Of a DNA stretch of 64,000 nt, positions 10,934 to 28,954 are shown one piece after another (within the stretch, counting starts at the first letter, position 1; every line of letters begins with the position of its first letter). A program made the position numbers and the translations under genes. This stretch comes from Jannaschia seohaensis (GTDB taxonomy: Bacteria > Pseudomonadota > Alphaproteobacteria > Rhodobacterales > Rhodobacteraceae): the NCBI RefSeq assembly GCF_900116765.1, contig NZ_UETC01000002.1, forward strand, positions 434,001-498,000, in the 5' to 3' direction. Under the pieces are notes generated by a model, which was not told the DNA's origin, ran no database searches, and was given only the letters and a program-made list of their open reading frames with translations.

Positions 10934-11518
10934 CTACCGCAGCCCGTCCTCGCCCACGGCCGCCTCGGCGGTCAGCCCGCCTACCCGTGGCAACGGCCTT
11001 CCGCTATCGGTAACGGCGACCGCGACCATGATCTCGCGCGCCCGGGGCGCGTCGTTAATCGCCACCTCGATCCCGTCGAAATGAGAGCGGACATAGGCCG
11101 CGTCCTTGTGGCCCAGCGGCACGTCCAGCACCTGCCCTGGCCCGCCCATCTTCTTGGAGGACGGCACCAGCGCGGCGCCTTTCTCGACCGCCGCGCGCAG
11201 CGGCGCGCCGAGCTTCGGGTGCAGGATCGCGGCCGCGTGCTCCAACTCGCCGGCCTCGCCGACCATGGCGGACTTGCCGTAGCTCTCCGCCGCGCCGGGC
11301 GCGATGCCCAGCGCCTCGACGCAGCGACGGCCCAGCAGGCCCCCCAGCTCGGCGCCGATCTCCATCAGCGGGGTGAGGTCCTCGACATACTCCCCGGCGA
11401 AGGGGTTGACGATCACGGCTACCGCCACGGCCTTGCGAGTGGGCGGGTCGATCGGGCGGCCCATCTCGCGATGGGTCTCCTCGACGGTGACCACGATCTT
11501 GCGAATCTCGGCGCTCAT
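10934..11518 (-). CDS. DUF1185 / 'amino acid synthesis' family protein, copy 1
   Basis: A 194-aa soluble protein of Pfam PF06684 (DUF1185), a family with a chorismate-mutase-like fold in crystal structures and no proven reaction. Features seen: an N-terminal strand IRKIVVTVEETH, NPFAGEYVEDLTPLM, GKSAMVGEAGELEHAAA, a basic KKMGGPGQVLDVPLGHKDAAYVRSHFDGIEV block and PRAREIMVAVAVTD. It is a tandem paralogue of the gene before it, whose stop it overlaps by ATGA, and it is last in the operon with the 6-hydroxynicotinate-reductase homologue. A role in handling a ring-reduced or ring-opened intermediate is inference from context. Confidence 0.82.
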   Translation of the reverse strand: MSAEIRKIVVTVEETHREMGRPIDPPTRKAVAVAVIVNPFAGEYVEDLTPLMEIGAELGGLLGRRCVEALGIAPGAAESYGKSAMVGEAGELEHAAAILHPKLGAPLRAAVEKGAALVPSSKKMGGPGQVLDVPLGHKDAAYVRSHFDGIEVAINDAPRAREIMVAVAVTDSGRPLPRVGGLTAEAAVGEDGLR

Positions 11519-12096
11519 CTCAGCCCGTCCTTTCCCTCGATATCGGCGGCGGCCAGCCCGCCCGCCCTGTCATGGATGCGCGCGCCGGTGGTCATCACCA
11601 ACACGACCGCCATCTCGCCCGCGCGGGGCGCATCAGCGCAGCCCACCTCGATCGCGTCGAAATGCCCGCGCACATAGGAGGCGTCCTTGTGGGTCACCGG
11701 CACGTCCAGCCGCGCCCCCAGACCGCCGACCTTCTTGGTCGAGGGCACGATGGCCTTCGCGCCGCCCAGCACCTCGCGCATCGCGTAGCCGCCGGGCGCG
11801 TGCCAGAGCGCGCCATGCTCGATCTCTCCGGCCTCGCCGACGATGGCGCCTTTGCCATAGCCTTCGATGGCGCCGGGGCCGCCCAGCGCGGCGGCCAGCC
11901 GGTTCGCCATGTCGACGCCAAGGGGTTTCAGCTCCTCCATGAAGGGCTGGATGTCCTCGTGGTAAGTGCCGGCGAACGGGTTTTCGATCACCGCCATGAT
12001 CCAGCCGCGCAGCAGCGGGCGCTCGGGCGGCGGGCCGCCCTCGTGGAAGATGTCTTCGCGCGACAGGATCGTCTTGCGCAGGATCAGATCAGGCAT
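11515..12096 (-). CDS. DUF1185 / 'amino acid synthesis' family protein, copy 2
   Basis: A 193-aa paralogue of the following gene. It shares NPFAGTYHEDIQPFM, GKGAIVGEAGEIEHGA, TKKVGGLGARLDVPVTHKDASYVRGHFDAIEV and PRAGEMAVVLVMTT, but begins differently (MPDLILRKTILSREDIFHEGG). The two copies are diverged enough to have separate jobs, or to form a hetero-oligomer. The start overlaps the end of the UPF0280 gene by eight bases and its own stop overlaps the start of copy 1 (ATGA), so all three are translationally coupled. No catalytic residue can be named with confidence. Confidence 0.82.
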   Translation of the reverse strand: MPDLILRKTILSREDIFHEGGPPPERPLLRGWIMAVIENPFAGTYHEDIQPFMEELKPLGVDMANRLAAALGGPGAIEGYGKGAIVGEAGEIEHGALWHAPGGYAMREVLGGAKAIVPSTKKVGGLGARLDVPVTHKDASYVRGHFDAIEVGCADAPRAGEMAVVLVMTTGARIHDRAGGLAAADIEGKDGLR

Positions 12097-12931
12097 GGGC
12101 GGGTCTCCGCAGGAAAAGGGGGCCAGTGGTCACCGTGTCGGAACCCAGCGTCAGCGAGGCGGCGGTGATGCGCCCGGCCGCGCGCAGCGCCTCGGCGCGC
12201 GCCCGGCCCGCCGCGAGCGCGCGGGCCCGCGCGCCCCGGTCGAGCGGCGCAACGCCGGTGACGACCGGACGGGGGCCGAGGTCGCTATCGGGGTCGAGTT
12301 CAATCGCCGGGAGTCGGCGGATGGCCGGATGCCCGGGCAGGTCGACAGCATTGGCGATCAGCGTTGCGGCCACGTCGGCGGCGGCGGCGTCGTGGGCCAA
12401 CACCGTCACGCTGTCGGCGATGCCCAGCGACAGGCTCCGCCCGTGCCGCCCGGAGGTCGCGATGCCGCCCACCCCGTCATCGGCCCCGATGTCGATCCGC
12501 CCGGTCTCGGCGCCGTCCACGCGCATCATCGCGCTACAATAGCGGGCGCCGGGGGCGAGATGCAGGGCGATGTCCCCGCCATCGTTGACATAGGCGCGGG
12601 TCAGGTCGAACGCGATCATCTCGGCCAGCAGCGCATCGGCCACCGCGCCCGCGACCGCCGCCATCGGCGTGACGAAGACGTCCCCGTAGGGCGCGACCGC
12701 CCGCGCCATGCCCCGGGCGACGGGACCGGCGAAGGGGGCGCCGCCCACCAGCGGGCGGCGCAACGCGCCCAGCTCAGCCACCAGTTCCGGCAGGATCGTG
12801 GGGAAGCGGGCGCGCGCCGCCGCCAGCGCCGCCGCGCGCCCGGGCCCCTCGGCCGACAGCACCGCGTCGATCGGGCCGTGCTGCAAGTGCAGCCGCCCGC
12901 CGGAGAGCCAGGCCGCAGCCGCGCCGCTCAC
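12089..12931 (-). CDS. UPF0280 family protein
   Basis: A protein of about 280 aa matching UPF0280 (INAVDLPGHPAIRRLPA, YVNDGGDIALHL, AMVAVAGAVADALL-like blocks), a family I recall as structurally close to ApbE flavin-transferase-like proteins. The GTG at 12931 overlaps the TGA of the upstream reductase gene (GTGA) and was preferred to a GTG nine bases earlier. Its place next to a predicted iron-sulfur/flavin ring reductase fits a cofactor-attachment or redox-maturation role, but this is inference. Glycine- and alanine-rich composition; no signal peptide. Confidence 0.8.
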   Translation of the reverse strand: MSGAAAAWLSGGRLHLQHGPIDAVLSAEGPGRAAALAAARARFPTILPELVAELGALRRPLVGGAPFAGPVARGMARAVAPYGDVFVTPMAAVAGAVADALLAEMIAFDLTRAYVNDGGDIALHLAPGARYCSAMMRVDGAETGRIDIGADDGVGGIATSGRHGRSLSLGIADSVTVLAHDAAAADVAATLIANAVDLPGHPAIRRLPAIELDPDSDLGPRPVVTGVAPLDRGARARALAAGRARAEALRAAGRITAASLTLGSDTVTTGPLFLRRPAHA

Positions 12932-14370
12932 CCGCGCCACCGGTAATGGGTGGGGTCACGCGGATCGGCCCGGTCCTCCGCCCGCGCGACACGCCGGGCG
13001 CGGCCCATATCCACGTCCTCCAGTGCCACGACCGCATCCGTGTATCCCCCCAGCGCCGCGTAATCCTCGGCCCGGAGCGTGAACTCGATCGGCGCGACCA
13101 GGGCGGGCGTGGGGACGTAGCCGAAGCTCTGCTGCGGCATCTCGGCCACGTCGACCATCACGGTGATGCCGCCGCCGGGCCAGACATAGGCCTCCGCCCC
13201 GCCGCAGGTGACATGGGTCAGCGCCTCGCGCACGGAGCGGGTCAGCCGCACCGGGTTCTCGGTCACGCCCGCGCGCAGGCTGCCGCCCGCCCCGGCCATG
13301 AACAGCACCGAACAGACCGAGGGCTCGCAATTCTCGGCGATCAGGTCCGAGGCCGCGCGCAGCGCCTCGGGCATCTCCGCGGGGCGCGGCACGAGGTCGG
13401 CGTCCAGTTCGTAATAGGCCGATTGCTCGCCGGTGGTGGAGACCATCAACAGGCGCAGGCCCGGCCAGGCCACCTTCGGCTTCCAGTCCTTCAGGATCGT
13501 CAGCGGGTCGGAGATGTCCGTCCCGCCCCAGCCCGTGCCCGGCTGCGCGACCTGGAAATAGCGGCCCGGCGTCGACCGCCGGCCGTTGAGGCGGATGCCT
13601 GTCGGCGGCACGCCCAGCTGCTTGCCCGCCTCGTGTTCCGACAGCACCCCGGTGATATGGTCGTCGACGACCACCACCTCATCGGCATGGCCCAGCCACT
13701 GCTTGGCGAACATCCCGATCGTGGCGGAGCCGCAGCCCACCCGCATCAGCCGCTCCGCCTCGCCATCGATGATGGGCGGCTGGCCGGACTGGACGACGAG
13801 GCGGATCGCGGGCTCGCCGATCTCCAGCTCCACCGCCTCCCGATTGCAGAGCGCCATCAGCGCATCGCAGGTCGCGCGGCCCTCGGGCTTGGTGCCGCCG
13901 GTCAGGTGCTCGACTCCGCCGAGCGAGAGCATCTTGGAGCCGTATTCGGAGGTGGTCACATGCCCGACCGGCTCGCCACGGAATCGCACAACGTCGCATT
14001 CGTGGCCGATATGGCGGTCGGTGTCGATCTTCACCTTGACGCCGCAATAGCTGAAGATCCCTTCGGTCACGACGGTGACCATGTCGACGCCCTCGATCTC
14101 GGAGGAGACGATGAAGGGCGCGGGCTTGTAATCCGGGTAGGTCGTCCCGGCGCCGATGGCGGTGACGAAGGGCTTGGCGGCGACCGGGTCCCCGTCCCAG
14201 TCGGAGCCCAGGAACGGGACCGCCGCGCCCCCGGCCTCCAGGACGGTCAGCGGGTCGAGCCGGACGAGTTCGCCGCCATGGTTGGCGTATCGGTCGCAGG
14301 CACCGGAACGGCCCTCGGCGATGTAGCACATGACGGGACAGGCGTCGCAGCGGATCTTCTCGGCGGTCAT
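12928..14370 (-). CDS. 6-hydroxynicotinate reductase-like iron-sulfur protein
   Basis: Homologue of the Hnr-type enzyme that reduces 6-hydroxynicotinate to 1,4,5,6-tetrahydro-6-oxonicotinate in Eubacterium barkeri. About 480 aa. It starts MTAEKIRCDACPVMCYIAEG with a C-x2-C-x3-C-x8-C cluster for an Fe-S centre, followed by GACDRYANHGGELVR and a central GPVEL-like reductase body (EGIFSYCGVKVKIDTDRHIG, GYGSKMLSLGG-like segment, VGCGSATIGMFAKQWLGHADEVVVVDDHITG). In-frame ATGs also exist at 14379 and 14409. It lies downstream of an XDH-family hydroxylase, as in nicotinate catabolism. The ring substrate is not determined. Confidence 0.82.
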   Translation of the reverse strand: MTAEKIRCDACPVMCYIAEGRSGACDRYANHGGELVRLDPLTVLEAGGAAVPFLGSDWDGDPVAAKPFVTAIGAGTTYPDYKPAPFIVSSEIEGVDMVTVVTEGIFSYCGVKVKIDTDRHIGHECDVVRFRGEPVGHVTTSEYGSKMLSLGGVEHLTGGTKPEGRATCDALMALCNREAVELEIGEPAIRLVVQSGQPPIIDGEAERLMRVGCGSATIGMFAKQWLGHADEVVVVDDHITGVLSEHEAGKQLGVPPTGIRLNGRRSTPGRYFQVAQPGTGWGGTDISDPLTILKDWKPKVAWPGLRLLMVSTTGEQSAYYELDADLVPRPAEMPEALRAASDLIAENCEPSVCSVLFMAGAGGSLRAGVTENPVRLTRSVREALTHVTCGGAEAYVWPGGGITVMVDVAEMPQQSFGYVPTPALVAPIEFTLRAEDYAALGGYTDAVVALEDVDMGRARRVARAEDRADPRDPTHYRWRG

Positions 14371-14419
14371 TGGGGGCATCCCAATTGGATCGGGTTGCGC
14401 CTGCCGCATGGTTCGGAAC

Positions 14420-14482
14420 GGGGGCTCTGCCCCCGCTCGCTACACGAGCCCCCCCGAGGTATTTTCGGCAAGATGAGGACCG
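14420..14482 (+). repeat. Intergenic hairpin plus 'GTATTTT' repeat
   Basis: GGGGG-CTCTG-CCCCC forms a hairpin at 14420-14434, followed by a GGTATTTTCGGCAAGATGAG unit ending near 14478. It is the same repeat type as at 10857, 36222 and 53640. It fills the 118-base gap between the hydroxylase and reductase genes of one operon, so it could act as a processing or attenuation site rather than a full terminator. Confidence 0.6.
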
Positions 14483-14527
14483 GCGGGAGCGCGTTAACCT
14501 TGATGAAGCGTGAAGGGGCGCGGGCGG

Positions 14528-17269
14528 TCATGGCTTGGCCTCCAGCAGGGCGGCCCGCAGGCGGGCGGGCGTGACCGGCAGCCGGGTCATCCGCGCTCCC
14601 GTCGCGTCGGCGATGGCATTAAGCAGCGCGGGCGCGGTAGGGATCAGGACATGCTCTCCCAGGCCCTTGGCGCCGTAGGGGCCATGCGCGTCGGTGCATT
14701 CGACGATGATCGTCTCGACCGGGGGCATGTCGCCGATGGTCGGGATCAGGTAGTCGTGCAGGTTCTCGGTGCGGCCAGGCAGGTATTCCTCCATCAGGGC
14801 CATGCCGAGGCCCTGGGCGATCCCGCCCTCGACCTGGCCCTCGATCAGCAGCGGGTTGACGGCGCGGCCCACGTCATGGGCGGCGACGAAACGGAGGGGG
14901 TGCACGGTGCCCATGGCGGCGTCGATTTCGACCACGGCGAGATGGGCGGCATAGCCGAACTGAGCATAGGGCGCGCCCTGGCCGTTCGCGTCGAGCGGCT
15001 TGGTCGGCGGATCGTAGGTTTCTTCGGCGCGGAGAACGTAGCCCTCCGGATCGGCGGGCATCGCCGTGAGGTCCAGCCGGTGGGTCCGGGCGCCATCGGT
15101 GATGGCGAGCGCGCCTGCGTCGCGCCGGATCACCGCCCCCTCGCCCGCATTGGCCCGCGCCAGGATCGCCGCCCGCAGGGACTCCCCCGCGAGCCGCGCC
15201 GCATTTCCGGAGACGAACGTCTGGCGCGAGGCGGAGGTCTTGCCGCCATCGGGCGTCAGGTCGGTATCGGCGCCGATCAGCGTCACATCGGCCACCTCCA
15301 CCCCCAGCGCGGTGGCGAAGATCTGGGCCATCACGGTGCTCGCGCCCTGTCCGATATCCATCGCGCCTTGGTGCAGCACGATCCGTCCGTCAGGGGTCAG
15401 CCCGGCCTTGAAGGTCGAGGGGTTGGGCAGCGAGGTGTTGCCGCAGCCATACCAGCCCGCCGCGACGCCGACGCCGCGCAGGCGCGCGCCATGGGGGCGC
15501 TGGCGCGCGCGCTCCTCCGTCCAGGCGGGGCGCAGGGCCTCCAGGCAGGCGCGGATGCCGACGCCCTGGGCGAAGATCTGGCCGCAGACGGTGGGCTGGC
15601 CGTCGGTCAGGGCGTTCCGGATGCGGAACTCCAGCCGGTCGAGGCCCAGACGGTCCGCCAGCATGTCGAACAGGCTCTCCTGCGCGACGGCGGCCTGGGG
15701 CACGCCGAAGCCGCGGAACGCGCCTGCGGGCGGGTTGTGGGTGTGAATGCCGCGCGCCTCGGCCCGGTAGTCGGCGATCCGGTAGGGACCGGAGGCGTGG
15801 ACCGGCACGCGCGTGGCCACGGTCGGGCCCCAGGACGCATAGGCGCCGGTGTCGAAATCGCCGTCGAAGCGCATCCCCAGGAGGCGTCCATCGGACGTCG
15901 CACCGATGCGGACTCGCATATCGGCGGGGTGGCGCTTGGTGGTCGACTGCATCGACTCTGCGCGGCTGTAGGCGAGACGCACGGGCCGGCCCGTCTTGAG
16001 CGCGGCCAACGCGAGATATGGCTGCACCGACAGATCCAGCTTGGAGCCGAAGCCGCCGCCGACGCCGGTCGGGACGATGCGGATATCGGTCTCGGGCCGA
16101 CCCAGGATCGCAGCCAGTGCCTCCCGATCCATCATCGGGGCCTGGGTGCAGGCATGGACGGCGATCCGCTCGCCCTGCATCTCGGCATAGCCGGCTTCGG
16201 GCTCGATATAGGCGTGCTCGACGAAGCTGGTGGTGAAGCGGCCCTCGACGACCGCGTCAGCGCGGGCGAGCGCGGCCTCGGCGTCGCCGCAGGCGACGAA
16301 GCCCGTGCACATGAGGTTGTCGGCCCGGTCCGCATGGAGTTGCGGCGCGCCAGGCGCGCGGGCCAGGTCCGGCGTCTCGGCGGCCGGACGCGGCGACCAG
16401 TCGATGGGGATCGTGGCTTCGTCCAGGGCCGCCACCGCTTCGGGTTCGCCCACGATGCAGGCGACGGCTTCGCCGCGGAAACGGGCCTCGCCCTCCGCGA
16501 AGACGGGCTGGTCGGCGAAGGCCGGAATGACGCCGAAACGGTTTTCGCCGGGGATGTCCGCAGCGGTCAGGACGCAGACGATGCCGGGCGTGCTCCGGGT
16601 CCACGCGTCGAGGTCGCCGAAGGCGAAGGCGGCGCGGGCATGGGGGCTTCGCAGGACGCGGAGCACGAGCGCGTCGGGCGGCGCGACATCGTCGCCGAAT
16701 CGCTCGGTCCCGGCCGTCTTGCCCGCGCCGTCGACCCGGCGCATCGCCGTGCCGACATGGCCCGGCCCGGCGGGCTCATCCGCCCTGGCGGCCGTCTTCG
16801 CCCCGGTGGCGACCACGGCGGCCACGATCTTGCGATAGCCGGTGCAGCGGCAGAGCACCCCGCCCAGCGCGTCCATGACCTCTGGCTCCGACGGCGCGGG
16901 CGTCTCGCTGAGCAGCGCCAGGGCCGAGACCATCATGCCCGGCGTGCAGATGCCGCATTGCGCGGCGCCATGAGCCTCGAACGCCTCGGCCAGTCGCGCA
17001 TGCAGCGGGTCGACCGCGAGGCCGCGCAGCGTCTTGACCTCCCGCCCTTCCGCCGCGTGGGTGGGCATGAGGCAGGCGCAGACCGGCGCGCCGTCCACCA
17101 GAACGGTGCAGGCCCCGCAATCGCCCGCGTCGCAACCGACCTTGACGTCGCGCGCGTCCAGACGCTCCCGCAGGGTGTGGGACAGACGCTCTCCGAGGCG
17201 GGGTCGGGCCGTGACCGGCATGCCGTTGAGGTCGAAGGCGACCGCTCCGATGGCGAGCGGCTTATCCAT
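14528..17269 (-). CDS. Xanthine dehydrogenase-family hydroxylase, fused 2Fe-2S and molybdopterin subunits
   Basis: A 913-aa molybdenum hydroxylase that adds oxygen from water to a carbon, usually next to a ring nitrogen. Residues 1-150 form the 2Fe-2S domain (C46, C51, C54, C64-66; second cluster QCGICTPGMM at 105-108 and CRCTGYRKI at 140-142). From about 165 follows the molybdopterin domain, with GVGGGFGSK near the cofactor, GAFRGFG, and the active-site Glu in GAKGLGEHVLIPTAPA. Small and large subunits are usually separate genes, so the fusion is notable. Eight bases overlap the FAD-subunit gene. Substrate unknown; context suggests a nicotinate-like heterocycle. Confidence 0.88.
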   Translation of the reverse strand: MDKPLAIGAVAFDLNGMPVTARPRLGERLSHTLRERLDARDVKVGCDAGDCGACTVLVDGAPVCACLMPTHAAEGREVKTLRGLAVDPLHARLAEAFEAHGAAQCGICTPGMMVSALALLSETPAPSEPEVMDALGGVLCRCTGYRKIVAAVVATGAKTAARADEPAGPGHVGTAMRRVDGAGKTAGTERFGDDVAPPDALVLRVLRSPHARAAFAFGDLDAWTRSTPGIVCVLTAADIPGENRFGVIPAFADQPVFAEGEARFRGEAVACIVGEPEAVAALDEATIPIDWSPRPAAETPDLARAPGAPQLHADRADNLMCTGFVACGDAEAALARADAVVEGRFTTSFVEHAYIEPEAGYAEMQGERIAVHACTQAPMMDREALAAILGRPETDIRIVPTGVGGGFGSKLDLSVQPYLALAALKTGRPVRLAYSRAESMQSTTKRHPADMRVRIGATSDGRLLGMRFDGDFDTGAYASWGPTVATRVPVHASGPYRIADYRAEARGIHTHNPPAGAFRGFGVPQAAVAQESLFDMLADRLGLDRLEFRIRNALTDGQPTVCGQIFAQGVGIRACLEALRPAWTEERARQRPHGARLRGVGVAAGWYGCGNTSLPNPSTFKAGLTPDGRIVLHQGAMDIGQGASTVMAQIFATALGVEVADVTLIGADTDLTPDGGKTSASRQTFVSGNAARLAGESLRAAILARANAGEGAVIRRDAGALAITDGARTHRLDLTAMPADPEGYVLRAEETYDPPTKPLDANGQGAPYAQFGYAAHLAVVEIDAAMGTVHPLRFVAAHDVGRAVNPLLIEGQVEGGIAQGLGMALMEEYLPGRTENLHDYLIPTIGDMPPVETIIVECTDAHGPYGAKGLGEHVLIPTAPALLNAIADATGARMTRLPVTPARLRAALLEAKP

Positions 17270-18095
17270 CGCAAGCGACCGTCAGAGCGCGGGAAATCTG
17301 ATGCGGGACGATCTCCGCCCGGTAGGCCGCATCGGCGCGGACATCGTCGATCGGGGCCAGCGGGGCGAGATGGGCTTGCGTTACGGTGACATCCGCGGGG
17401 CGGCGGCCCAGCATCTCGGCCTCCAGCGCCGGGAGGCGCCTGGCGACCGGCGCGCAGGCCCCGACGGCCACGCGGGCATGGTCGATCCGGCCCTCGGCGT
17501 CCAGGCCCACCGTCACCGCGGTCATCGCGATGGAAATCACGAGGTAGCGCCGCGCCCCCGTCTTGACGAAGGCGCCCCGCGCATGGGCGGGCTGCGCCGG
17601 GATGTGCAGCGCGACGACCAGTTCCTGCGTCCCGCGCGCCGTCTGGCGCGGCCCTGTCACGAAGTCGGCGAGCGGCAGGCGGCGCCGTCCCGCGGGGCCG
17701 GCCAGCTCCACCTCCGCGTCCAGCGTCAGAAACGGCGGCATACCATCGGCGGCAGGCGAGGCGTTGCAGAGATTGCCCGCGACCGTCCCCGCGTTCTGGA
17801 TCTGCACGCCACCCACCTCGCGCGCCGCCGCGCGCAGCCCGCCGAAGACCGGCGGCAGGTCGGCCCGGGCGATCTGCGTCCAGGTCGTGGCGGCTCCGAT
17901 GCGCCAGCCCGCGCCGTCGCGGTCGATGCCGCGCAGCTCGGCCAGGCGGGTCACGTCCAGCACATCGCCAGAGACAGGCGTGCGGCCGCGCGCGGGGAAC
18001 CAGTCGGTCCCGCCCGCCACGACGGAGATCTCCCGCGTGCCGAGCAGGCCCAGCGCCTCCTCCAGATCCGTCGGTGCGTAATACGCGGCGTCCAT
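17262..18095 (-). CDS. FAD-binding (medium) subunit of the molybdenum hydroxylase
   Basis: Electron-accepting FAD subunit (CoxM/XdhB-like) that pairs with the following fused 2Fe-2S/Mo subunit. The start at 18095 (MDAAYYAPTDLEEALGLL) has a GAGGGGG ribosome site; upstream ATGs at 18116 and 18152 lack one. FAD motifs seen: VVAGGTDWFP and AGTVAGNLCNASPAADGMPP, the latter being the GGN/ASPAAD FAD loop. The C-terminal domain (GACAPVARRLPALEAEMLG) matches CO_deh_flav_C. Eight-base overlap with the next gene and 64 bases behind the Crp/Fnr-type regulator. Confidence 0.9.
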   Translation of the reverse strand: MDAAYYAPTDLEEALGLLGTREISVVAGGTDWFPARGRTPVSGDVLDVTRLAELRGIDRDGAGWRIGAATTWTQIARADLPPVFGGLRAAAREVGGVQIQNAGTVAGNLCNASPAADGMPPFLTLDAEVELAGPAGRRRLPLADFVTGPRQTARGTQELVVALHIPAQPAHARGAFVKTGARRYLVISIAMTAVTVGLDAEGRIDHARVAVGACAPVARRLPALEAEMLGRRPADVTVTQAHLAPLAPIDDVRADAAYRAEIVPHQISRALTVACDG

Positions 18096-18159
18096 GGCCC
18101 CCTCGGCATGCCCCATGAAGAGACGGTAGGAGGGGGCCCCACGCGCTGTCAACGCAGGC

Positions 18160-18825
18160 TCAATCGGGGGAGAAGCCGGTCACTTTGCCGAGATGGAGAA
18201 ACTGGGGATCGAACCGCCCCATCCGGCGCAGACCGTCATGGTCGTGGATCGTAACGCGCCCGCTCTCGACCGTGCACAGCCCCGCCTGCCGCAGCTCGCG
18301 CAGCATCCGGCTGACATGGACGGAGGTCATGCCGCAGGCCTCTCCGATATCGCTCTGCGTCATCGGCAAGCGGAATTGCCCGCCTTGCGAGCGGTCGGCC
18401 AGCCGCAGGCGCAGCTCCATCTCGCACAGGAAATTGGCAACCGCCGCGCGCGCGCGGAGCGCTCCCATCCGGAAGGACCAATGCCAATGGATCGTCGCGT
18501 CGATGGTCGTCAGCTCCCAAAGGGCCATCGCAAGGACATGGTCCCCCGCGATCAGCTCTCTGAGGCGCGCGTTCGGAAAAGCGGCGACGGTGACCGGCGT
18601 GATCGCGATCACGTCGTGATCCAGGACTTCCTGGGGAAAGCTGTGCAGATCGACGAAATCTCCGGGCACCTGCAGCGCCACCATCTGCCGGACCGAACCG
18701 TCTGCGCCGGGGACGCTGCGGCCGATCAGACCGTCGAGCAAAAGCTGACTGGAGGGGATCGGGTGGCCCCTTCGGGAGAGGACCGCCCCAGCGGGCAACT
18801 CCCGCAGGCCGGCGCAGGCCGTCAT
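18160..18825 (-). CDS. Crp/Fnr family transcriptional regulator
   Basis: A 221-aa activator or repressor with an N-terminal cyclic-nucleotide-type beta-roll (LPAGAVLSRRGHPIPSSQLLLDG, QVPGDFVDLHSF) and a C-terminal winged helix (LPMTQSDIGEACGMTSVHVSRMLRELRQ, recognition helix around residues 165-185). It lacks the N-terminal Cys set of Fnr and I do not see a clear cAMP-binding Arg-Ser pair, so the signal is unknown. It is on the same strand directly ahead of the hydroxylase/reductase operon, which makes it the likely local regulator. RBS unclear. Confidence 0.85.
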   Translation of the reverse strand: MTACAGLRELPAGAVLSRRGHPIPSSQLLLDGLIGRSVPGADGSVRQMVALQVPGDFVDLHSFPQEVLDHDVIAITPVTVAAFPNARLRELIAGDHVLAMALWELTTIDATIHWHWSFRMGALRARAAVANFLCEMELRLRLADRSQGGQFRLPMTQSDIGEACGMTSVHVSRMLRELRQAGLCTVESGRVTIHDHDGLRRMGRFDPQFLHLGKVTGFSPD

Positions 18826-19001: not shown

Positions 19002-19457
19002 TCAGCCGGGCAGCGTGCCCCGCTCCACATAGGTCAGGATCTGCACGACCTGCTCCGGGCGCTCCACCACGGCGAGCGCGGCGGCGTCGACCTCCTTGAG
19101 GGCGTGCTGATGGTCGGGGCCGTGCATGACGATCAGGGACTTGCCCCAGGCCGAGGCGAGCCCGGCATCGAAGGCGGCGTTCCACTGCTTGTACTTGTCG
19201 CCGAAGCGGACGACGACGATGTCGGCGTCCTGGATCCCTTTCCGCGTGCGGATGGCGTTGAGCTTGGCGCCCTTGTTGTCGTGCCAGAACTTGTTCGGCT
19301 CCGCCCCCATGATGGCGACGCCGCAATCGTCCGAGGCGGCGTGATCGGTCACCGGGGCCGAGACGGTCACATCGAGCCCCGCCGCCTTGCAGCCGGCGAC
19401 GATCTCGTCGCGCCAATCGGTGTGAATCTCTCCGGAGAGGTAGACGGACAGGGTCAT
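19002..19457 (-). CDS. ytoQ: YtoQ family protein
   Basis: A 151-aa cytoplasmic protein recognised as YtoQ: MTLSVYLSGEIHTDWRDEI, SAPVTDHAASDDCG, EPNKFWHDNKGAKLNAIRT, DADIVVVRFGDKYKQWNAAFDAG and HALKEVDAAALAVVE. The nucleoside 2-deoxyribosyltransferase-like Rossmann layout (SGE...DADIVVVRF...GYKQWNAAFDAG) suggests action on a nucleoside or nucleotide, but the family has no proven reaction. AAGGAGG lies ahead of the start. It stands alone between convergent and divergent neighbours. Confidence 0.87.
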   Translation of the reverse strand: MTLSVYLSGEIHTDWRDEIVAGCKAAGLDVTVSAPVTDHAASDDCGVAIMGAEPNKFWHDNKGAKLNAIRTRKGIQDADIVVVRFGDKYKQWNAAFDAGLASAWGKSLIVMHGPDHQHALKEVDAAALAVVERPEQVVQILTYVERGTLPG

Positions 19458-26285: not shown

Positions 26286-26744
26286 ATGCGGATCAGAGTG
26301 AACGGGACCGATCACGAGGTCGATTTCGAAGAGGACATGCCGCTTTTGTGGCTGCTGCGCGACGAGCTTGGCATCCACGGGCCGAAATATGGTTGCGGCA
26401 TCGGACAATGCGGGGCCTGCACCGTGCATCTGGACGGAGTCGCGGTGCGCGCCTGTCAGGTCTGGGCCGCCGATGTGGGGGCGGCCGAGGTCACGACGAT
26501 CGAAGGGCTGGGCACGGAGGACGCGCCACACCCCGTGCAACAGGCCTGGATCGATCTCCAGGTCGCGCAATGCGGCTACTGCCAGCCCGGTCAGGTGATG
26601 CAGGCGGCGAGCCTGCTGAACGAGACGCCCAATCCCACCGACGCGGAGATCGACGACGCGATGTCCGGCAATCTCTGCCGCTGCGCCAGCTATCCGCGCA
26701 TCCGCGCCGCCGTGCGCCGCGCCGCCGGGCAGGAGGGCGCGTGA
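26286..26744 (+). CDS. 2Fe-2S subunit of an isoquinoline 1-oxidoreductase-type enzyme
   Basis: A 152-aa electron-transfer subunit (IorA-like). Plant-type cluster ligands C37, C42, C45 and C57 ([17 protein letters not shown] ... ACQVW), second cluster [12 protein letters not shown] (C96, C99) and [10 protein letters not shown] (C131, C133). The CGYCQPGQ form with Gln is typical of the IorA branch rather than xanthine dehydrogenase. AGGAGG sits just ahead of the ATG. Its TGA overlaps the ATG of the large subunit. No FAD subunit is encoded, as expected for cytochrome-linked Ior enzymes. Confidence 0.9.
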
Positions 26745-28954
26745 TGGGCCTGGGCAAGATCGCACGCCGGAGCTTCCTGATCGGCACCGCTGCCCTCGGC
26801 GCGGGCGTGGCCTTCGGCGTTTATTCCTACCGCCGGGAGGGGGAGAACCCGCTACGCGCAGGGCTCGCGCCCGATGCGGCGGCGCTGACGCCTTACGTCC
26901 TGCTCGACCCGGAGGGCGTGACCCTCATCACGCCGCGCGCCGATGTGGGGCAAGGCGCCGCCTCGGTCCAGGCGCATCTTCTGGCCGAGGAGTTGGACGT
27001 GGACCCGGCGGAGGTCCGCCTGTCCCCGGGGCCGGCCTCGCCGGTCTATCACAACGGCAAGGTCGCGGCCGAGGGGATGCCCCTGGCGGCCTGGGATGAC
27101 GGCTTCGCCGCACGCACCGGGCGGGCCGCCTCGGAGGTGGCGGGCAAACTGATGGGGCTGCACCTGACCGGCGGCTCCACCACCGTTCCGGACATGTATG
27201 ACCGCTTGCGCGCCGCCGGCGCCTCCGCGCGCGAGACCCTCAAGGCGGCCGCGGCGGCGCGGCTGGGCGTCCCGGCGGAGACGCTCCGCACCGAGGGCGG
27301 GCGCGTGATCTGGGCCGAAGGCGCGCTGCCTTACGCGGAGCTGATCCCCGCCCTGGCCGAGGTCGAGGTGGTCCAGGACGTGCCGCTGCGCGATCCCTCC
27401 GACTGGCGCCATCTGGGCCGCCCGCACCGGCGGGTCGATATCGTGGCGAAATCGGTGGGCACGTTCCGCTATGGGGGCGATCTCGTACTCGAGGACATGG
27501 TCCATGCGACCGTGGTCACCAATCCGACGCGCGGCGGCGGCGTGGTTTCGATGGACGCCTCCGAGGCCGAGGCCATGCGCGGGGTCGAGGCGGTACTGCC
27601 GATCACCGACGGCGCCGCCGTGCTGGCCGACAACGACTGGCGCGCCTTCAAGGCGGCGCGGGCGCTCCGATTCGAATGGGGCGGCGCTGGCCCGCGGGAC
27701 GACTCCTTGTTGGAGATGCACGCCGCGGCGCTGGACGGCGACCGCGACAGCGCCTTCACCGACGAAGGCGACGTGGATGCGGCCCCCGGCAAGCGGATCG
27801 AGGCGGAATACCGCGTCCCCTTCCTGCACCACGCGCCGCTGGAGCCCGCGACCGCGACCGTGCGTTACACCCCGGAGGCGACCGAAATCTGGGTCGCGAC
27901 CCAGGCGCCGATCTTCGTGGCCGAGGCGGTCGCGCGCCTCACCGGGCAGGACCGGGAGCAGGTGACGGTCCACGTCCTGCCCGCGGGCGGCAGTTTCGGC
28001 CACCGGCTGGAGCACGAATGGGTCGAGCAGGCCACCGAGATCGCGCGTCAGGTGCCCGGCCGTCCCATCCGCCTGATGCTGAGCCGCGAACAGGACATGA
28101 CCCATGGCTTCTACCGGCCGATGGCGATGGCGCGCGGGCGCGGGACCGTCGAGACCGGCCAAGTGCGGTCCCTCGATCTGGCCGTGGCCGCGCAATCCGT
28201 GGCCGAGAGCCAGCTGGGCCGGCTGGGCTATCCGGCGCTGGGCCCGGACGTGGCCATCGTCGCGGGGGCCTGGGATGCGCCCTACACCCTGCCCGACCGG
28301 CGCATTACCGGCCATCGCGTGCCCGCGACCGTGCCGGTCAGTTCCTGGCGGTCGGTCGGCGCCTCCCATAACGGGTTCTTCCTGGAGAGCCTGATGGACG
28401 AGTTGATCCACGAGGCGGGCGCCGACCCGGTCGAGGAGCGGCTGCGCCTGCTGTCCCACGCCCCCTCCCGCCGGGTGTTAGAGACAGTGGCCGAAATGGC
28501 CTCCTGGAACGGGCCGGAGGGCAAGCGGGGCGTGGCCTTCGCCTTCAGCTTCGGCGTGCCTGTGGCGCAGATCATGGAGGTCCGGGAGACGTCGCAGGGC
28601 ATCGTCATGGACCGGCTCTGGATCGCCGCCGAACTCGGCCGCGTGCTGGACCCCGTCAACGCGGAGGCACAGCTGTCGGGCGGCGCGCTATTCGGCATCG
28701 GCCACGCCATCGCCGCGGAGATCACCTTCGGCGGGGCCGGGCCCGAGCAGCAGAACTTCGACACCTACGAGAGCCTGCGGCTGTGGCAGGTGCCTCAGGT
28801 GGAGGTGCGCGCCCTGGGCTCCGGCGGGTCGATCCGGGGCGTGGGCGAGCCGGGGCTGCCGCCCGCAGCCCCGGCGCTGGCCAACGCGATCTTCGCCGCC
28901 ACGGGCACTCGGCTGCGGCGGATGCCGTTTTCGGCCGAAATGCGCTTCGCATGA
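26744..28954 (+). CDS. Tat-exported molybdopterin subunit, isoquinoline 1-oxidoreductase beta-like
   Basis: A 736-aa large subunit of a periplasmic molybdenum hydroxylase or aldehyde dehydrogenase. The start at 26744 gives a twin-arginine signal (ARRSFLIGTAALGAGVAFG) and overlaps the stop of the 2Fe-2S gene; the longer frame is spurious. Mo-cofactor motifs: ITPRADVGQGAASVQ, PFLHHAPLEPATATVRY, LPAGGSFGHRLEHEWVEQA, SVGASHNGFFLES and the active-site Glu in GVGEPGLPPAAPALANAI. Partner of the preceding gene. Substrate open: N-heterocycle or aldehyde. Followed with ATGA overlap by a phosphatase gene. Confidence 0.9.
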   Translation: MGLGKIARRSFLIGTAALGAGVAFGVYSYRREGENPLRAGLAPDAAALTPYVLLDPEGVTLITPRADVGQGAASVQAHLLAEELDVDPAEVRLSPGPASPVYHNGKVAAEGMPLAAWDDGFAARTGRAASEVAGKLMGLHLTGGSTTVPDMYDRLRAAGASARETLKAAAAARLGVPAETLRTEGGRVIWAEGALPYAELIPALAEVEVVQDVPLRDPSDWRHLGRPHRRVDIVAKSVGTFRYGGDLVLEDMVHATVVTNPTRGGGVVSMDASEAEAMRGVEAVLPITDGAAVLADNDWRAFKAARALRFEWGGAGPRDDSLLEMHAAALDGDRDSAFTDEGDVDAAPGKRIEAEYRVPFLHHAPLEPATATVRYTPEATEIWVATQAPIFVAEAVARLTGQDREQVTVHVLPAGGSFGHRLEHEWVEQATEIARQVPGRPIRLMLSREQDMTHGFYRPMAMARGRGTVETGQVRSLDLAVAAQSVAESQLGRLGYPALGPDVAIVAGAWDAPYTLPDRRITGHRVPATVPVSSWRSVGASHNGFFLESLMDELIHEAGADPVEERLRLLSHAPSRRVLETVAEMASWNGPEGKRGVAFAFSFGVPVAQIMEVRETSQGIVMDRLWIAAELGRVLDPVNAEAQLSGGALFGIGHAIAAEITFGGAGPEQQNFDTYESLRLWQVPQVEVRALGSGGSIRGVGEPGLPPAAPALANAIFAATGTRLRRMPFSAEMRFA

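What the first reader, a model, noticed from the sequence alone, without database searches (positions are those of the whole stretch)
10934..18825. Uncharacterised operon pairing a molybdenum hydroxylase with a 6-hydroxynicotinate-reductase homologue
The minus-strand genes run regulator, FAD subunit, fused 2Fe-2S/Mo subunit, Hnr homologue, UPF0280, DUF1185, DUF1185 with mostly overlapping ends (seen). Nicotinate fermentation in Eubacterium barkeri uses exactly this order of chemistry: a Mo hydroxylase makes 6-hydroxynicotinate, and Hnr then reduces the ring (known). Here it sits in what looks like an aerobic marine-type alphaproteobacterium, without the enamidase and later genes of the clostridial route. 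I infer a shortened reductive N-heterocycle pathway whose ring-opening step may be done by the DUF1185/UPF0280 proteins. It could act on nicotinate, a pyridone, or another hydroxylated N-heterocycle.
Basis: partly seen in the sequence, partly recalled or inferred. Interest (0 to 1): 0.78.

Follow-up and report, generated by a model that had tools for sequence, protein, structure and literature searches.

The report
Nicotinate-breakdown operon, enamidase encoded elsewhere
This is most likely a known type of gene set for eating vitamin B3 (nicotinate); the ring-opening gene that seemed to be missing lies about 60 kilobases away, and the comparison turned up two unexplained helper proteins and a probable second ring-opening machine that are worth testing.

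Summary
The gene list at 10934-18825 is right. Ring opening by DUF1185/UPF0280 is not supported: the same genome encodes a full-length relative of Eubacterium barkeri enamidase (356 bits to PDB 2VUN) at C17:513650, 61 kb away, behind an ABC transporter whose relatives sit beside hnr in other species. The route nicotinate > 6-hydroxynicotinate > tetrahydro-oxonicotinate > 2-formylglutarate thus looks complete; it is published for aerobic Azorhizobium and Bradyrhizobiaceae (PMC3511419, passages). New member of a known kind. Three patterns look new. (1) UPF0280, structurally ApbE-like, is in the same 44 of 289 alphaproteobacterial genomes as Hnr and in 53 of 53 enamidase loci holding Hnr, across phyla. 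I propose it matures Hnr, perhaps by attaching flavin, though the ApbE catalytic His is missing. (2) In those 44 genomes the Hnr-linked enamidase class (18) and a caprolactamase-like HyuAB class (26) exclude each other. (3) One DUF1185 clade follows enamidase: 18 of 18 genomes against 3 of 26. Substrate and helper roles are inferred.

The parts
18160..18825 (-). CRP/FNR-type transcriptional regulator (221 aa), probable local regulator in place of the NicR-like MarR protein found in many relatives
   Evidence: Pfam HTH_Crp_2 and cNMP_binding; NCBIfam only below cut-off; no relative of it detected in the 47 other hnr loci
17262..18152 (-). FAD subunit of the molybdenum hydroxylase
   Evidence: Pfam FAD_binding_5, CO_deh_flav_C
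14528..17269 (-). fused 2Fe-2S / molybdopterin subunit of the hydroxylase, predicted nicotinate dehydrogenase
   Evidence: Pfam; in the PDB its Mo part matches both Mo chains of E. barkeri nicotinate dehydrogenase, 3HRD_A 273 bits and 3HRD_B 206 bits; best single chain is aldehyde oxidoreductase 1DGJ, 397 bits over the whole length; NCBIfam's best models are xanthine dehydrogenases, all below cut-off
12928..14409 (-). 6-hydroxynicotinate reductase homologue (Hnr); start codon uncertain, first conserved Cys at residue 21 of this frame
   Evidence: 62-76% identity to plasmid relatives; 41-46% to the anaerobe-type Hnr of nine loci that also hold enamidase; 6 invariant Cys in 32 sequences, four of them C-x2-C-x3-C-x9-C
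12089..12940 (-). UPF0280 / COG2122 protein, ApbE-like T-fold, proposed Hnr maturation factor
11515..12096 (-). PF06684 (DUF1185, AA_synth) protein, AAS1 clade
   Evidence: Pfam 228.7 bits; tree
10934..11518 (-). PF06684 (DUF1185, AA_synth) protein, AAS2 clade, the enamidase-linked one
   Evidence: Pfam 243.7 bits; tree; linkage

Best explanation
The operon is the catabolic half of an aerobic reductive nicotinate pathway of the Azorhizobium/Bradyrhizobium type. The Mo hydroxylase makes 6-hydroxynicotinate and Hnr reduces it to 1,4,5,6-tetrahydro-6-oxonicotinate. An enamidase, encoded with an ABC importer in a second operon on the same contig, opens the ring hydrolytically, giving 2-formylglutarate and ammonia. 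UPF0280 is not a ring-opening enzyme but an ApbE-like helper needed to make active Hnr, most likely by handling or attaching its flavin. The AAS2-type DUF1185 protein helps the enamidase step, most likely by speeding enamine/enol hydrolysis or tautomerisation of the opened product; AAS1 has a less tightly coupled accessory role. Shown: gene families, presence of an enamidase relative, co-occurrence patterns, predicted folds. Inferred: substrate, order of steps in this organism, and the roles of UPF0280 and the two DUF1185 proteins.
For: The enamidase relative at G000:C17:513650-514795 aligns over 382 residues with 2VUN, 356 bits, 45% identical; the residues that I recall as metal ligands (H67, H69, E164, H193, H220, D276 in 2VUN numbering) are invariant in the six aligned. 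It ends a run of genes hypothetical-SBP-LivH-LivM-LivG-LivF-enamidase whose transporter is 56-67% identical to the one beside hnr on the Neorhizobium plasmid. The window's nearest rows on the Hnr tree (L164, L167, L156, L004, L165) hold enamidase in the same stretch as hnr. Nine named Bradyrhizobium loci carry hnr, UPF0280, DUF1185, ABC transporter, MarR protein, ferredoxin-NADP reductase and enamidase, five of them also NicA- and NicB-like matches, which agrees with the published description of that cluster: first three steps, ABC transporter, two unknown proteins (PMC3511419). The Mo part matches E. barkeri nicotinate dehydrogenase. Hnr and UPF0280 are in the same 44 of 289 genomes.
Against: No growth, enzyme or expression data. 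The hydroxylase family has many substrates, its nicotinate specificity was not tested, and NCBIfam ranks xanthine dehydrogenase models first, below cut-off. The two operons are about 54 kb apart, so co-regulation is not shown. The fate of 2-formylglutarate in this genome was not searched. [quoted passage not shown]
Confidence: 0.82

Rival explanations
1. One reading: a shortened reductive N-heterocycle pathway in which the DUF1185 and/or UPF0280 proteins open the ring.
For: Both gene families are in the operon, and I found no established enzymatic activity for either in print.
Against: An enamidase relative is in the genome; each of 44 Hnr genomes has the Hnr-linked enamidase or HyuAB class; 5 of 44 lack any DUF1185; a UPF0280 paralogue serves homocysteine synthesis (PMC5764234), where no ring is opened.
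Confidence: 0.03
2. Same order of chemistry, but on another N-heterocycle (a substituted nicotinate, pyridone or other pyridine carboxylate) rather than nicotinate.
For: Hydroxylase types differ between clusters (fused type, or NicAB, or a three-subunit XDH-like set nearby), some clusters add a Rieske oxygenase or other genes, and the ring opener varies.
Against: The summed two-chain match of the Mo part is to nicotinate dehydrogenase; NicAB-like genes are used in some clusters; the enamidase relative is 45% identical to the E. barkeri enzyme and keeps all putative ligands.
Confidence: 0.14
3. UPF0280 does not act on flavin: it is a subunit of Hnr, or a sulfur / Fe-S helper as suggested for COG2122 with DUF39.
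For: No conserved catalytic His and no ApbE motif in the partner; COG2122 has been suggested to take part in persulfide modification (PMC5764234); Hnr has a conserved Cys cluster.
Confidence: 0.45

Closest known systems
Reductive nicotinate catabolism of Azorhizobium caulinodans / Bradyrhizobiaceae SG-6C (PMC3511419, passages read; Kitts 1989, 1992 and Alhapel 2006 recalled, not held)
   Same: Hydroxylase, Hnr, enamidase, ABC transporter and, by my inference, the same two unknown proteins; aerobic alphaproteobacteria
   Different: Here the enamidase and transporter form a separate run of genes ~54 kb away, the hydroxylase is a fused 2Fe-2S/Mo protein where the Bradyrhizobium loci show NicAB-like genes, and a CRP/FNR regulator stands where others have a MarR protein
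Eubacterium barkeri nicotinate fermentation (PDB 2VUN enamidase, 3HRD nicotinate dehydrogenase)
   Same: Relatives of the first three enzymes
   Different: Anaerobe-type Hnr in nine loci carry an N-terminal two-cluster ferredoxin domain that the window's frame lacks; E. barkeri's own hnr locus was not in hand and the later clostridial steps were not looked for
ApbE FMN transferases (PF02424)
   Same: T-fold, conserved Ser and Asp
   Different: About 18 residues shorter between Ser and Asp, catalytic His not conserved, partner lacks the D-x-x-[ST]-G-A-[ST] motif
COG2122/UPF0280 of the DUF39 homocysteine pathway (Desulfovibrio; PMC5764234, passages)
   Same: Same protein family, required together with a partner enzyme
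   Different: A divergent paralogue; Hnr and DUF39 show no homology
TgnF of trigonelline and HcdD of 7-hydroxycoumarin degradation (PMC7913881, passages)
   Same: DUF1185-related proteins in ring-degradation operons
   Different: HcdD's effect could not be shown there; sequences not compared here

Membership tests
Reductive (Hnr-type) nicotinate pathway | Mo-containing nicotinate hydroxylase gene | tested here: inconclusive
   Homologous to 3HRD nicotinate dehydrogenase, but the family has many substrates
Reductive (Hnr-type) nicotinate pathway | 6-hydroxynicotinate reductase gene of the Hnr family | tested here: met
   One family across phyla, 41-76% identity to the window protein
Reductive (Hnr-type) nicotinate pathway | Enamidase gene | tested here: met
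   in trans, same contig; activity not tested
Reductive (Hnr-type) nicotinate pathway | Growth on nicotinate via tetrahydro-6-oxonicotinate | not testable with these tools
   -
ApbE-type FAD:protein FMN transferase (for UPF0280) | ApbE T-fold | tested here: met
ApbE-type FAD:protein FMN transferase (for UPF0280) | Conserved Ser and Asp of the Ser-His-Asp set (PMC12052999, passages) | tested here: met
   S163 and D189 invariant in 32; correspondence inferred from the HMM alignment
ApbE-type FAD:protein FMN transferase (for UPF0280) | General-base His | tested here: not met
   No invariant His between them; 12 of 32 have any His in the segment
ApbE-type FAD:protein FMN transferase (for UPF0280) | Partner with D-x-x-[ST]-G-A-[ST] motif | tested here: not met
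   0 of 98 Hnr sequences
ApbE-type FAD:protein FMN transferase (for UPF0280) | FMN transferase activity | not testable with these tools
   -
Pfam PF06684 (DUF1185, AA_synth) | Full-length profile match over the gathering score | tested here: met
   243.7 and 228.7 bits, cut-off 27
Caprolactamase CapA/CapB (for the HyuAB pair of other genomes, tested on the Neorhizobium proteins) | NCBIfam caprolactamase equivalog cut-off | tested here: not met
   Best family, but 482 and 309 bits against cut-offs of 1000; likeness only

The most novel reading that the evidence does not exclude
UPF0280 (COG2122) is a second, cytosolic branch of the ApbE flavin-transferase superfamily, dedicated to Hnr, that installs Hnr's covalent flavin with altered chemistry and at a new kind of site; its paralogue does an equivalent maturation for DUF39. 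In addition, in more than half (26 of 44) of the sampled alphaproteobacteria with Hnr an ATP-dependent caprolactamase-like HyuAB pair replaces the enamidase, and the enamidase-linked DUF1185 clade (AAS2) is an enamine/enol hydrolase or tautomerase for the enamidase product.
Probability: 0.3. Interest if true: 0.7.

Novelty: new member of a known kind. Interest (0 to 1): 0.5.

Why it matters
It places an uncharacterised-looking operon in a known vitamin B3 breakdown route and gives testable jobs to two widespread families of unclear function. Strict pairing of UPF0280 with Hnr makes the origin of Hnr's covalent flavin (recalled from Alhapel 2006) directly testable. The mutual exclusion of enamidase and HyuAB predicts a second, ATP-driven way to open the reduced pyridine ring that I did not find in the open-access library (search).

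Tried and rejected

Results against the reading, and rows dropped. L140 holds UPF0280 without Hnr in the fetched stretch and L153 has UPF0280 near its edge; in L133 Hnr and UPF0280 are 6.5 kb apart, and in L069 the contig ends inside Hnr. 27 of the 80 enamidase loci hold no Hnr in the stretch. Two of the 44 UPF0280 genomes (G064, G087) have it split between contigs and below the family cut-off, and four genomes without Hnr have weak UPF0280-like hits (E 4.6e-7 to 6.5e-4). 17 genomes have DUF1185 without Hnr, one of them (G082) an AAS2-like protein (enamidase not searched there). Two HyuAB-class genomes have a weaker enamidase-like match (G104 401 bits, G064 246 bits), and two enamidase-class genomes a weaker HyuB (G065, G231, 44-45%). 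The classes were set after seeing the gap in scores. Dropped: open frames under 80 aa in all scripts; Hnr tree rows with score 380 or less or coverage 0.8 or less (98 kept), DUF1185 tree rows with score 180 or less or coverage 0.85 or less (130 kept); alignments A2 and A3 used the window plus 31 of 52 and 31 of 53 available loci; G053's 34-residue Hnr hit was not counted; G064 was not fetched for but was. The lists behind the counts were copied by hand. Searches of own and other genomes were capped, so G296-G298 were not searched whole for Hnr.
Full report
What is there. The genome holds one Hnr and two DUF1185 proteins, all in this cluster. The two DUF1185 proteins are 48% identical to each other and belong to two clades that run through the whole comparison: AAS1 (11515-12096) and AAS2 (10934-11518).

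The missing enzyme. 26 plasmid records hold a close Hnr relative; in 8 regions read from them (one without annotation and read by open frames) and 39 stretches of unnamed alphaproteobacterial genomes, the Hnr-UPF0280 pair is joined in varying sets by DUF1185, branched-chain-type ABC transporters, MarR/NicR-like regulators, ferredoxin-NADP reductase, a Mo hydroxylase, and an amidohydrolase or a HyuA/HyuB pair. The window cluster has neither of the last two, so I searched its genome. The amidohydrolase is present at C17:513650-514795, 77% identical to the Sulfitobacter one; HyuA is present only as distant relatives (best 43%), and HyuB gave no match at 1e-150. The window is C17:434001-498000, so the operon (444934-452825) and the second run of genes (from about 507214) are some 54 kb apart. 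The second run reads hypothetical protein - SBP - LivH - LivM - LivG - LivF - amidohydrolase. The amidohydrolase matches one solved structure at E <= 1e-10, E. barkeri enamidase 2VUN, 356 bits over the full length, 45% identical, with all residues that I recall as metal ligands conserved.

What it most likely does. Nicotinate to 6-hydroxynicotinate (Mo hydroxylase; the Mo part matches both Mo chains of E. barkeri nicotinate dehydrogenase, 273 and 206 bits, though 1DGJ is the best single chain, and NCBIfam ranks xanthine dehydrogenase models first, below cut-off), to tetrahydro-6-oxonicotinate (Hnr), to 2-formylglutarate and ammonia (enamidase). This route is published for aerobic Azorhizobium, and a conserved cluster for Bradyrhizobiaceae (PMC3511419, passages; also summarised in PMC9304392, passages). 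Nine named Bradyrhizobium loci fetched here (L114-L117, L121, L122, L124, L127, L129) carry hnr, UPF0280, one DUF1185, transporter, MarR protein, ferredoxin-NADP reductase and enamidase, five of them also NicA- and NicB-like matches near the end of the stretch. [quoted passage not shown] its figure is not held, and USDA110 itself was not fetched). On the Hnr tree the window's nearest rows come from named roseobacters and relatives with enamidase in the stretch.

Anaerobe and aerobe Hnr. Nine loci (L088-L095 and L097; Bacillota, Desulfobacterota and Syntrophorhabdaceae by their record titles) have Hnr with an N-terminal two-cluster ferredoxin domain. The window's frame has only ten residues before its listed start, and the two proteobacterial frames whose upstream parts I viewed (L107, L114) also lack it. 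Ferredoxin-NADP reductase genes beside many proteobacterial clusters suggest that electrons come from a separate ferredoxin (inference). None was detected in the window or in L086/L087.

Two ring openers. In the 44 Hnr genomes the Hnr-linked enamidase class (656-738 bits) is in 18 and the Hnr-linked HyuB class (64-77% identity to the Neorhizobium protein) in 26; none has both and none has neither. Weaker relatives (enamidase-like at 401 bits or less, in five genomes including HyuAB-class G104 and G064; HyuB at 53% or less, in five genomes including enamidase-class G065 and G231) were not counted; the classes were set by the gap in scores. HyuA stands beside HyuB in most of the stretches read. 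On the Hnr tree the two labels are interspersed: 11 changes for the HyuAB label over 98 rows with stretch-level labels, at least 7 forced by supported branches, and 6 over the 38 rows with genome-level labels. Since the same Hnr and UPF0280, and mostly the same fused hydroxylase, go with both, the simplest reading is that HyuAB, whose nearest curated families are caprolactamase subunits though well under their cut-offs, opens the same lactam at the cost of ATP. I did not find this in print (four papers listed, none on point from the listing).

DUF1185. Counting all DUF1185 hits of these genomes, AAS2 is in 18 of 18 enamidase-class genomes and 3 of 26 HyuAB-class genomes (G080, G104, G195) (Fisher p 1e-9, not corrected for descent). 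Other DUF1185 proteins in these genomes belong to AAS1 or to further clades. In the tree, 72 of 78 AAS2 rows come from enamidase loci (the 80 loci were picked by enamidase, which inflates that share), including loci with enamidase but no Hnr in the stretch (L098, L102, L118). So AAS2 follows the enamidase rather than Hnr. [quoted passage not shown] an acid-base role on an enamine or enol product fits but is inference. A DUF1185 relative, TgnF, is said to stimulate a trigonelline-pathway dehydrogenase, while no such effect could be shown for HcdD (PMC7913881, passages).

Verdict. What deserves follow-up is not the operon's novelty but the three association patterns it led to.

Noticed in passing
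26286-28954 (+): A second molybdenum-hydroxylase-like pair in the window: a 2Fe-2S subunit (26286-26744) and a MoCoBD-containing subunit ending at 28954, followed by a phosphoglycolate-phosphatase-like HAD protein; all NCBIfam matches below cut-off.
   Followed up: partly
L086:9214-10896: A protein in a 560-aa frame without any Pfam or NCBIfam family heads the transporter-enamidase run; relatives sit beside the same transporter type in other hnr loci (L006, L009, L044, L045, L076, L148, L158).
   Followed up: partly
L179: A second Hnr-type UPF0280 gene in the genome behind L088 (G289) lies next to a frame that looks argininosuccinate-lyase-like by eye, with no Hnr beside it in the 3.8 kb held.
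   Followed up: no
L070:9309-10732: In G028 the Hnr gene matches in two frames (query 14-243 and 241-477), a frameshift or assembly error; left as it is.
   Followed up: no
L004:10419-29449: In Sulfitobacter sp. S190 the hnr cluster is on a 146-kb plasmid whose bacteriochlorophyll genes start directly beyond the cluster's transporter genes; hnr relatives were found in 26 plasmid records.
   Followed up: no
19002-19457 (-): YtoQ-family nucleoside deoxyribosyltransferase-like gene directly upstream of the regulator, same strand; not detected in the 47 related loci.
   Followed up: no
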